In this document: piece after piece, positions 11,234 to 49,115 of the stretch | Numbering within the stretch: the first letter of the stretch is position 1 | Layout of the letters: each line of letters starts with the position of its first letter | Source: Owenia fusiformis | Taxonomy: Eukaryota; Annelida; Polychaeta; Sabellida; Oweniidae | Length of the DNA: 64,000 nt | NCBI GenBank assembly: GCA_903813345.2 | Contig: CAIIXF020000008.1 | Span: 18,708,822-18,772,821 of the forward strand | Direction: 5' to 3' | Made by a program: the position numbers and the translations under genes | The notes under the pieces: model-generated | What the model saw: the letters and a program-made list of their open reading frames with translations, nothing else | What the model was told of the DNA's origin: nothing | Databases searched by the model: none

Positions 11234-14200
11234 ATGACAGTGTGGACCTGTATAGCGCAACACGAATATAAAAAAATGTCGCTGTTGAACAGAATCTCAC
11301 AATTCTCTTCAAAATCTATGATCAATTTGGATAACATTAACGAAAGTACACATGAGGATAATACAAAACGGAATTCAGCCATCACGGATACAATGCTTCG
11401 TGTTGGTCCTCGGGTGTTACCCCGAACCTCAAGTCGGAATTCTAGCTTCCAGCCTCTAAATGCATATAATCGCAGTAATTCAATGTCGTCTATATATGCT
11501 TCCAGTCAGCAGCCGGAGCACAGTATTGTGTCATCCAGGGCCAGTGTGATGATTTACGATGACGCCAACAAGAAGTGGGTGCCGAGCGGGGGAGTGCAGA
11601 CACTTTCAAAAGTACAGATCTACCACCATTCCCAAAATAACACATTTAGAGTCGTGGGAAGGAGATTGACAGATCATGAGGTAAGATTTTTTACTTCTCA
11701 ATCAAGAGAAAAAATTCATCACCTTTATGTCCTTCATAATATTCTCTAACAAAGATTTGGGTTATGAACACAAAATGATTGAAGCAGAGAATTGATCCAA
11801 GACTACAATGGCTACATACGCCTTAATGGTCTGTTTCATCCTTGATCCAAGGGTATTTCACTTCTTTTTACAATTGAAAAAGTAATGATGCTTTTGATGT
11901 ACTGTGGGTCTGTACATGTCATATGTGTTTTACCAATATGGCCATTTGTGCTTGATTCGTTTAATTATCTGGGAAAATATTCATAAAGATAGTATAGGTT
12001 CTCAAGAGTTGAGCCATAAAAATCTTAATTGTTATATAATTGTTTATTAATCATAATGACATTGTGCAACTGAAAATTATTAAATGATGATATCTAATCA
12101 TAAAATTAGTCAAATTCACAAAATGTGTTGCATGGATGGAATGTTAAACTGCTTTGCTAAGGTAAGGAGATAGGCTTAGTTAAAATTATTTATTATTGAC
12201 GATTGCAGATTAAAAATAAATCATACACAATACAATACAGTCATAGAATATATTATATTTTTGAGCAATATGAGGTTAATTGCTATTCAGTTGAAATAGT
12301 TGACCTTCAAACATATATTTATCACATCAAGGCATATGTTTTTGATCAATTGCACCCTATGGATTGGATAAGTCAGTTTAAAACAGTTTGGCACTTTTTA
12401 TGAAAAACATAGCTGGCTGTCACCTACTTTTAGCAAATCTAGATTTTGGTTGTTTTGCTTTAATCTGCTTTAGGTCATAGTATATATACAGTCAAGGGAA
12501 AATGTTTAACCAATGGCTAGTCAATATTGCTTATAATTTATAGGGACCTTTCCATTAACTCAAAAAAATAAAATCTCGCATGAAAAACCTTTCCTTCAAT
12601 GTTATCACACTACCCTACCTCGATAGCGCATGCGCAAATTTTTTGGCTTTCAACCAGGTCGCTTTTGAGTATATCGACTGCTTAGTCAAAAGGTTAATAC
12701 GTTTGATGCTCGGAGTGAGTCAATATTGCTATTCGCTGAACTTCAGTGGTGCAATAGTGAAGTCCATGTTCCAAGTTATATGATAGTTGAAGAAAGAATG
12801 TAAATAATATCGTTTTAAATTTTAAAATATTTGATATGTCATAGTACATGGTACACAGTTGCAAAAGTTGATCAATACAGGGTACAAGGAATGTAAACTG
12901 TTCAATAGTACAGGGAGCGAGAAAGTAAGCTGATTATACGGACATACTATATCCCGATCTCATGTACATTTACGTTGCAAACAGTGAAAATAATGCTAAA
13001 AAGGCCGCCTGTTGATGCTTTGAGGTGTCATCAATTGTTATTTAATGCAAATAAAGTAAACATTATTTTGTAGATTGAGACACAGGCTTTCAGGTCGTAT
13101 ATATGCATTTTAGTCATTGAATTAACAAGGCACGCTAGATTATATGTGTTACTAGGGTATCAAATTGAAATGAAATAACGAAATTAAATATGAACACATT
13201 AATGATAAATGACTATCCGCTATCAGGATTAATGACTATCCGCTATTCAGAATAATTCAAACTGCCTGAACTACATGTAAAGAATCTTTCTATATAACCC
13301 ATTTAATGGTCTAATTCACTACCGTCCCCAAAAACCGACCATTTGAAATATTTTGTTCAAAATACCATCATGCCACGACTTGAGAGCATTTTGTTCTTAA
13401 CGATTTGTTGTAGCGCTGATATGACGTCGTATTTCTCTATTATTGAAAAAACTAATACCTGATCGATGTTGGATGTCAGATGTTTTTGGATGGTATATGC
13501 TCCAGTGATTTTGCATTGAACCATGAAACGCTCATCACAAGACACTTCGAAACAAACATTATCCTCTTTGTGACAAGAGGAAAATGTTTCACAATATGTT
13601 ATGCCTTACGGCAAAGTAAAGATATATTTCTGGGACGACCTTTTTGCATTATTAAGATTTTAGAAAAATAATTAATTCACGAAAATACAGTTGAATAGTA
13701 CTAACATACTGGAAAACGTATCCACATATAACACGATGACACGCAGTTTAAATAACAGTTAACTGTTTTTTTTTGTTACATAACAATGCAACATTTTCAA
13801 AGGGAAACGGCATGCTCCCTGTACTTTGATAGATTTACTGAAATGTATCGTGTATTGCATTGACTTTTGCTTCACTGCGCCCACTATTATCTATCTTTGC
13901 CTATAGTGGTTTTTTGACAACAATATTCTACAAACTGCTTGATGAATCAATTCTATGTCTGGTAGAACACAAGAAATAAATGTAAAATGTATTTTACGTT
14001 CAGAAATATGGAATTAAACCCACGTCCTCCATTTGCAACTTAGCTGTACCCTGTTTCCCTTTTAAACGTGGTCACGTGGTAGGGTAGTGTGGTTATATCT
14101 TGTATGAGTACTGCTTTGAATTTTTGTACATATTCCCGTGTGCTGCTCATATAAAATAATATGACAAGAAAATAAAACTAAGTTGACTACCATTCACATT

Positions 14201-48500: not shown

Positions 48501-49115
48501 TCTCCTTGTCTCTGGTTGGTGGGGTATGTGTAGGCATCCCAACTATCTTGGTGATCTCATCATGGCATTCGCCTGGACCCTCCCTTGTGGTAAGTTCGTA
48601 TGAATCAACTTGTATTAAATTGTCTGATTTTGATTGATGCTTTCAAAAAAGGGTCATCCTAAGATCTCGTGGAACATCAATTTTCAGATAATTTTGGCGG
48701 GAATATTTAATATCCAAATCTAATACTTCGTTCCTACTGGTCTTTCTCTCTTTCCAGTTTAGAGATTGTTTCTGGATAATCCAAACATTCCATTAGTTCT
48801 TGAGAAATCAACTCATCAAACAACTAGGCTAAATAGTAAATACCAGATACATACGCATTGAGCAAAACTCAATATTTTGTTAAGATGAACGAAGATAATT
48901 TTTGACTGTTCATACTTTGCATACAAGTTTTAACCTTTAAACTTACTATTGCAGGATTCAAGTTTGCAATGCCCTGGTTTTATCCACTCTACTTCGTGGT
49001 CTTGCTGGTTCACCGTGCCTATAGAGATGACTTGTTCTGCAGGAAGAAGTACGGCACCTCATGGAATAATTACCGTGAGCGCGTCAAGTACCAGATTATC
49101 CCATATGTATACTAG
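39584..49115 (+). CDS. LBR: Lamin B receptor (Tudor domain + sterol C14-reductase-like membrane domain), eleven coding exons
   Basis: Inner nuclear membrane protein that tethers lamin and heterochromatin; the vertebrate protein also reduces the sterol C14 double bond with NADPH. Exons: 39584-39745, 40549-40630, 40816-40976, 45607-45690, 46260-46424, 46619-46799, 47009-47203, 47524-47753, 47986-48154, 48386-48589, 48955-49115. All phases agree, giving 597 codons, near the 615 of human LBR. Residues 1-58 are the Tudor domain ([10 protein letters not shown] start). Residues 60-135 are Arg/Ser/Lys-rich with [10 protein letters not shown], a likely SRPK target. A Thr-rich linker follows, then membrane segments from about 195. 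The ERG24-type core has [37 protein letters not shown] and the RHPNYLGD signature, ending IIPYVY. Each key motif is present, so reductase activity is plausible but not shown. ATG 39584 has A at -3 and follows an acceptor at 39547. Confidence 0.96.
39853..40022. mobile_element. MITE of the TACAGTGAAACCTG family in LBR intron 1
   Basis: Left end TACATAGTTAAACTTATCT with AGTGAACACCTC and AGTTAACACC inside; right end CACAGGTTTTACTGTCGTA. Same internal motif order as the 17445-17629 copy. Confidence 0.6.
42034..42871 (+). mobile_element. piggyBac-type MITE, copy 2 (LBR intron 3)
   Basis: Same orientation and structure as copy 1: TTAAAGTCCCCGTCTAAAGT at the left, ACTTTACATGGGGCCTTTAA at the right, with TTAA at both boundaries. 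Differences from copy 1 are scattered single substitutions and small length changes in A or T runs, with no large rearrangement. No coding capacity. Confidence 0.85.
43395..44800 (+). mobile_element. Non-autonomous element with a central array of six roughly 147-bp units
   Basis: The left end carries ATCCCATCGAACGAAGTTCG followed by CCTCCGTCCGTCCGTCCG. The right end carries GTTCGATGGGAT, the inverse of the left start. Between them GTAGTGGAG recurs at about 43770, 43921, 44066, 44213, 44360 and 44508 (spacing 145-151 bp). Each unit includes ATTTGGTATGTGAATACTAT and an AAATGGCCGCCATTT-type palindrome. The layout of unique ends around a central satellite-like array resembles non-autonomous Helitron-like elements described in marine invertebrates, but I see no decisive Helitron terminus. 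A degenerate relative lies at 55241-55920. Confidence 0.75.
47800..47918. mobile_element. Fragment of the TACAGTGAAACCTG MITE family (LBR intron 8)
   Basis: The right end TATACAGGTTTTACTGTA is clear, preceded by AAGGTGTTCGGATTAGCCAGG and AATGGGAG repeats like those near 7630-7745. The left terminus is missing or strongly diverged. Confidence 0.5.

What the first reader, a model, noticed from the sequence alone, without database searches (positions are those of the whole stretch)
11234..49115. Ena/VASP and LBR in tandem: linkage apparently conserved with human 1q42
Ena and LBR lie next to each other on the same strand, Ena first, with only repeats between them. In human, ENAH and LBR are neighbours at 1q42.12, both transcribed in the same direction with ENAH upstream. 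Two functionally unrelated genes keeping order and orientation over such a distance suggests an ancient syntenic block, possibly held by a regulatory element of one gene lying in or beyond the other.
Basis: partly seen in the sequence, partly recalled or inferred. Interest (0 to 1): 0.72.

Follow-up and report, generated by a model that had tools for sequence, protein, structure and literature searches.

The report
Ena and LBR as gene neighbours
Two unrelated animal genes, one for an actin regulator and one for a nuclear-membrane protein, sit side by side in the same direction here, apparently as in human, which probably reflects inherited gene order; why they stay together is untested.

Summary
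The window carries a complete Ena/VASP gene (9 coding exons, 11234-26905) and a complete lamin B receptor gene (11 coding exons, 39584-49115), both on +, Ena first, 12.7 kb apart. The gap has no Pfam match at E<=0.1 in six frames. "Only repeats" is not shown: 6.4% of it recurs within the window. Printed human coordinates put LBR beside ENAH on chromosome 1; strands are recalled. Chance gives about 0.4-15 such pairs per genome in a simulation, so shared descent is the better reading but not proved. No other animal genome could be searched, so age, spread and conserved non-coding DNA are untested, and a regulatory cause has no evidence here. A plausible further case of known animal microsynteny; three searches of held open-access papers joining ENAH with synteny or microsynteny terms found none.

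The parts
11234..26905 (+). Ena/VASP (Enabled) gene, 9 coding exons: 11234-11680, 14569-14734, 16218-16410, 19675-19775, 20106-20473, 21327-21515, 22026-22186, 26384-26535, 26877-26905; 601 aa
   Evidence: splice model; WH1, VASP_tetra; Mena EVH1 best match
11522..11680 (+). first half of EVH1 domain (exon 1); 96 residues precede it if the ATG at 11234 is used
14569..14734 (+). second half of EVH1 domain (exon 2)
20106..20473 (+). proline-rich exon of Ena ending in a basic [14 protein letters not shown] stretch
   Evidence: likeness to the Ena/VASP G-actin-binding motif is recalled
26384..26905 (+). C-terminal tetramerisation exons of Ena
   Evidence: PF08776
22887..24771 (-). predicted four-exon nested gene in Ena intron 7 (24771-24405, 24227-24143, 23712-23525, 23164-22887), 305 aa, no known family
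   Evidence: open, GT-AG, phases fit; no match above cutoff; weak coding signal
26906..39583 (.). Ena-LBR gap, 12.7 kb: no Pfam, tRNA or Rfam match; tandem array 28046-28298 and inverted repeats e.g. 35682-36012, 30792-30892
39584..49115 (+). lamin B receptor gene, 11 coding exons: 39584-39745, 40549-40630, 40816-40976, 45607-45690, 46260-46424, 46619-46799, 46970-47203, 47524-47753, 47986-48154, 48386-48589, 48955-49115; 610 aa
   Evidence: splice model; PF01222
39584..39745 (+). LBR Tudor domain exon
   Evidence: human LBR Tudor 2dig rank 3, another LBR Tudor 2l8d rank 42; SGF29_Tudor just under cutoff
40549..40976 (+). two exons of the Arg/Ser-rich region of LBR (40549-40630, 40816-40976)
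   Evidence: sequence
57024..57218 (-). NOP10, one exon, 64 aa
   Evidence: E=1.6e-26 to 7bgb chain J
59971..60069 (-). last exon of Churchill (CHURC1), stop included; earlier exons not recognised in the window
   Evidence: E=6.1e-09 to 2jox

Best explanation
The window is from an unidentified animal genome and holds two intact, ordinary genes, Enabled and lamin B receptor, in tandem. The arrangement is most likely inherited from a common ancestor with vertebrates: the two genes sat next to each other in that ancestor and no rearrangement breakpoint fell between them in either lineage. Shown: gene identity, order and strand in the window. From a paper: neighbouring positions on human chromosome 1. 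Inferred: common descent. Not shown: any functional reason for retention; my default is slow loss of gene order rather than a shared regulatory element.
For: Gene models and domains. No recognised gene in the gap. Human coordinates of LBR, ENAH, SRP9 in that order (passages); one chicken table row, read as chromosome 3, 17-18 Mb, lists both genes (passage). Simulation: a neighbour pair is kept in order and orientation by chance with probability 2e-5 to 5e-5 under full scrambling and 4e-4 to 1.1e-3 if scrambled within 17-29 linkage groups. PMC8851819 reports far more conserved blocks than shuffled genomes give (passages: 162 new blocks at its PLCA node against 17, 19 or 25 in shuffles; these appear to be blocks of three or more genes, not pairs).
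Against: One pair in one genome. If linkage groups are kept but order inside them is scrambled, as PMC7269912 says for amphioxus and other lineages (passages), about 8-15 chance pairs per genome are expected, and this pair was picked from a large scan. NOP10 and CHURC1 are not LBR's human neighbours (recalled), so the block is not seen to be larger than a pair. In Drosophila the two genes are not adjacent (recalled). Human strands are recalled.
Confidence: 0.75

Rival explanations
1. The pair is inherited and kept by a cis-regulatory constraint: an enhancer of one gene lies in an intron of the other or in the 12.7-kb gap, as in genomic regulatory blocks. (This adds a cause to shared descent and does not exclude it.)
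For: Such constraints are reported for other ancient pairs (PMC5429095 passages: 43 of 60 microsyntenic units hold enhancer-like signatures in adult sponge). The gap and the Ena introns are long enough to hold elements. In human the gap is about 58 kb (computed).
Against: No conserved non-coding element could be looked for. Neither protein has the domains of a transcription factor or signalling molecule. No paper in the listings links the two genes' regulation (57 found 0; 58 listed 15 of 46, titles and abstract starts only).
Confidence: 0.15
2. Chance or convergent juxtaposition, helped by both genes belonging to one ancestral linkage group.
For: About 8-15 chance pairs per genome expected under conserved linkage groups; selection of the finding from a large scan; the genes beyond LBR do not match human (recalled).
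Against: Per-pair probability stays near or below 1e-3, and conserved blocks exceed shuffled genomes in published counts.
Confidence: 0.15
3. The reductase gene is not LBR but a TM7SF2-type C14 reductase, so the comparison with human LBR is not between orthologues.
For: The two PDB matches are C14 reductases without an LBR label; no LBR_tudor Pfam match at E<=1 (whether that model is in this copy was not checked); no tree was built.
Against: N-terminal Tudor fold near human LBR Tudor and Arg/Ser-rich exons, which TM7SF2 lacks (recalled).
Confidence: 0.04

Closest known systems
Ancient conserved microsyntenic gene pairs of animals (Irimia et al. 2012, not held; cited in PMC5429095 passages)
   Same: Two unrelated neighbouring genes in the same order and orientation in this genome and in human (human strands recalled)
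   Different: Spread across phyla and regulatory content are untested here; I could not see the 2012 list
Genomic regulatory block (target plus bystander gene)
   Same: Unrelated neighbours with a long gap
   Different: No transcription-factor-type target gene and no conserved non-coding element shown
Human 1q42 ENAH-LBR
   Same: Same two genes as neighbours; same order and strand (strands recalled)
   Different: Beyond LBR lie NOP10 and CHURC1 here, DNAH14 in human (recalled). Beyond Ena no gene was recognised here in 1-10000; in human SRP9 comes next among the genes listed

Membership tests
Ena/VASP family | N-terminal EVH1 domain | tested here: met
   PF00568 E=5.4e-33; Mena EVH1 4.1e-50
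Ena/VASP family | central proline-rich region | tested here: met
   exon 20106-20473 translation
Ena/VASP family | C-terminal tetramerisation coiled coil | tested here: met
   PF08776 E=6.8e-15
Lamin B receptor | C14 sterol reductase domain | tested here: met
   PF01222 E=8.4e-128
Lamin B receptor | NADPH-pocket Asn and Arg (human N547, R583; maSR1 N359, R395) | tested here: met
   N542 and R578 of the model align with N359 and R395 of 4quv, counted by hand on the alignment; residue roles from PMC4951196 passages
Lamin B receptor | N-terminal Tudor domain | tested here: met
   fold predicted from one sequence, best model pLDDT 81, other four 53-59; 2dig rank 3, TMq 0.80, E 4.6e-03, 0 matches at E<=0.001. 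Against: phmmer found no Tudor, SGF29_Tudor was under cutoff (21.9 of 23.8 bits) and no LBR_tudor match appeared
Lamin B receptor | orthology to LBR rather than TM7SF2 by tree | not tested
   no animal protein set at hand
Conserved ancient microsyntenic pair | adjacent, same order and orientation in this genome and in human | tested here: inconclusive
   window side met; human neighbouring positions; human strands and absence of a gene between are recalled
Conserved ancient microsyntenic pair | present in several distant phyla | not testable with these tools
   no animal genomes held; scans of viral contigs, where animal genes are not expected, gave no relative
Genomic regulatory block | conserved non-coding elements spanning the bystander | not testable with these tools
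   no second genome to compare
Genomic regulatory block | a developmental-regulator target gene | tested here: inconclusive
   domains are of actin-regulator and sterol-reductase kind, not transcription factors; Ena has developmental roles (recalled)

The most novel reading that the evidence does not exclude
Ena-LBR is an unreported bilaterian-age gene pair held together by a shared or embedded regulatory element, so that the actin regulator and the nuclear-envelope protein are regulated from one landscape across animals.
Probability: 0.1. Interest if true: 0.55.

Novelty: new member of a known kind. Interest (0 to 1): 0.3.

Why it matters
If the pair proves to be shared across phyla it adds one marker of ancestral animal gene order and one candidate for a regulatory constraint that links a cytoskeletal and a nuclear-envelope gene. 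As it stands it is an ordinary-looking instance of animal microsynteny. Identifying this species would also bear on where LBR occurs: PMC5630835 (passages) calls LBR restricted to deuterostomes in its text and the Tudor fusion restricted to Metazoa in a figure legend, while a coral genome paper lists an LBR_tudor domain in a table (PMC6214176, passage).

Tried and rejected
Own genome: none held. Irimia 2012: not held. Ten paper searches: 0 papers hold ENAH, LBR and microsynteny, 0 hold ENAH, LBR and synteny, 0 hold ENAH and microsynten. These cover the held open-access library only; of the longer hit lists I saw the listed rows only (for example 20 of 167, 25 of 1,212). Supplementary tables, where pair lists live, could not be searched. 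Papers whose passages did not help: PMC7205035, PMC1464143, PMC7717901, PMC5617974. No paper was read whole.

Tudor by sequence search: 5 matches, named SAKe6 (designed proteins, recalled), with per-domain E-values over 200 in the three alignments shown, discarded; settled by fold instead. Relatives in viral contigs: 1 and 9 pattern matches, 0 confirmed, for EVH1 and the LBR reductase part. Nested gene: no Pfam match above cutoff (only bPH_4, 13.5 bits against 22.9), 0 in PDB at E<=5. Its coding signal is weak: the longest stop-free run of 138 codons is reached in 3 of 500 mononucleotide shuffles, 1.5% of 2,000 gap segments score as high on codon use, and one wrong frame scores slightly higher than the coding frame, so it stays a prediction. 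A weak Thg1 match (E 0.055, 13.8 bits against 29.2) is taken as chance. A bacterial promoter scan does not apply to an animal genome and is not used. The idea that Ena, LBR, NOP10 and CHURC1 all map to one vertebrate paralogon (1q42, 15q14, 14q23) is recalled and was not tested.

Coverage of the Pfam scans: 1-10000 and 49100-64000 in six frames (one of three queries repeated a frame), 26900-39600 in six frames, 39400-49200 in the three + frames, 20087-27000 in the three + frames and 22500-24900 in the three - frames, two Ena ORFs and the spliced models. Not scanned: 10001-11197; Ena introns before 20087 on +; the minus strand at 10001-22499, 24901-26899 and 39601-49099.

Full report
What was claimed.

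What is there. A 9-exon Ena gene (11234-26905, 601 aa) and an 11-exon LBR gene (39584-49115, 610 aa) can be spliced with GT-AG introns and matching phases, without internal stops. Ena has WH1 (E=5.4e-33) and VASP tetramerisation (6.8e-15) domains, and its EVH1 part is closest among solved structures to Mena (4.1e-50). It carries a proline-rich centre and 96 residues before EVH1 if the ATG at 11234 is used; whether that extension is translated is unknown. LBR has the C14 reductase domain (8.4e-128). The NADPH-pocket Asn and Arg that PMC4951196 describes (passages) align with N542 and R578 of the model (counted on the alignment). The first exon is predicted as a Tudor-like barrel from a single sequence (mean pLDDT 81 for the best of five models, the other four 53-59). 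Foldseek ranks human LBR Tudor 2dig third, behind two chains of a Drosophila Tudor-SN entry, with E 4.6e-03 and no match at 0.001 or better. Sequence searches alone did not find the Tudor: phmmer gave none, SGF29_Tudor was just under its cutoff and no LBR_tudor match appeared. LBR identity rests on the combination of Tudor fold, Arg/Ser-rich exons and reductase; no tree was built.

The gap. 26906-39583 has no Pfam family in six frames at E<=0.1. The window has no Rfam match at gathering score and no tRNA. The gap holds a 50-bp tandem array at 28046-28298 and five inverted-repeat pairs, but just 6.4% lies in 20-mers that recur in the window. 'Only repeats' cannot be confirmed without a repeat library.

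A predicted four-exon gene lies on the minus strand inside Ena intron 7 (22887-24771, 305 aa), without a known family and with a weak coding signal. Beyond LBR lie NOP10 (57024-57218 -) and the last exon of Churchill (59971-60069 -). In human, DNAH14 lies beyond LBR (recalled), so that side does not match. On the Ena side no family above cutoff was found in 1-10000 (10001-11197 was not scanned), so nothing can be compared with SRP9, the next gene beyond ENAH among those listed. Of the three neighbour relations among the four named genes in the window (Ena-LBR, LBR-NOP10, NOP10-CHURC1), one matches human and two do not (human places of NOP10 and CHURC1 recalled).

Human side. PMC12083599 prints coordinates on chromosome 1 of LBR 225589204-225616627, ENAH 225674537-225840844 and SRP9 225965531-225978168 (passages). 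The ENAH symbol is garbled there as E-H; the row carries ENSG00000154380 and 55740, which I match to ENAH from recall, and the SRP9 row is cut in the passage and was matched by its number 6726, also from recall. The same paper lists LBR, ENAH and SRP9 together under chr1q42. The LBR-ENAH gap is 57.9 kb. Strand and the absence of another gene between are recalled. A chicken study lists both genes in one row, which I read as chromosome 3, 17-18 Mb (passage).

Chance. In a simulation with 12,000 or 20,000 genes, the expected number of neighbour pairs kept in order and orientation is 0.4-0.6 per genome if order is random genome-wide, and about 8-15 if genes are shuffled only within 17, 24 or 29 linkage groups; about half of these are tandem pairs. 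PMC7269912 reports that linkage is kept while order inside units is largely scrambled between amphioxus and other lineages (passages). PMC8851819 reports many more shared blocks of animals than in shuffled genomes, for blocks that appear to hold three or more genes (passages). So descent is likelier than chance for this pair, yet a pair picked from a wide scan is not strong proof alone.

Mechanism. I take inherited adjacency with slow loss as the default. A regulatory constraint is reported for other pairs (PMC5429095, passages), but nothing here shows it for Ena-LBR, and the three searches joining ENAH with synteny or microsynteny terms found no held paper. The species is not identified.

Verdict. 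Observation confirmed; interpretation partly supported; a likely further case of a known phenomenon.

Noticed in passing
22887-24771 -: Predicted four-exon gene nested in Ena intron 7 on the opposite strand, 305 aa, no known family
   Followed up: partly
57024-57218 -: NOP10 in a single exon downstream of LBR, convergent with it
   Followed up: partly
59971-60069 -: Last exon of Churchill (CHURC1); its other exons were not recognised and may lie beyond the window
   Followed up: partly
43763-44565 +: 147-bp tandem array of 5.4 copies, rich in a GGCGGCCATTTTGAAAAA-like motif, inside an LBR intron; a related short array at 43541-43578
   Followed up: no
52001-64000: CpG observed/expected is 0.80-0.89 in these three 4-kb bins against 0.23-0.65 in the other thirteen, a sharp change near NOP10 and CHURC1 that may reflect mosaic methylation
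   Followed up: no
11234-11521 +: Possible N-terminal extension of Ena of 96 residues before the EVH1 domain
   Followed up: no
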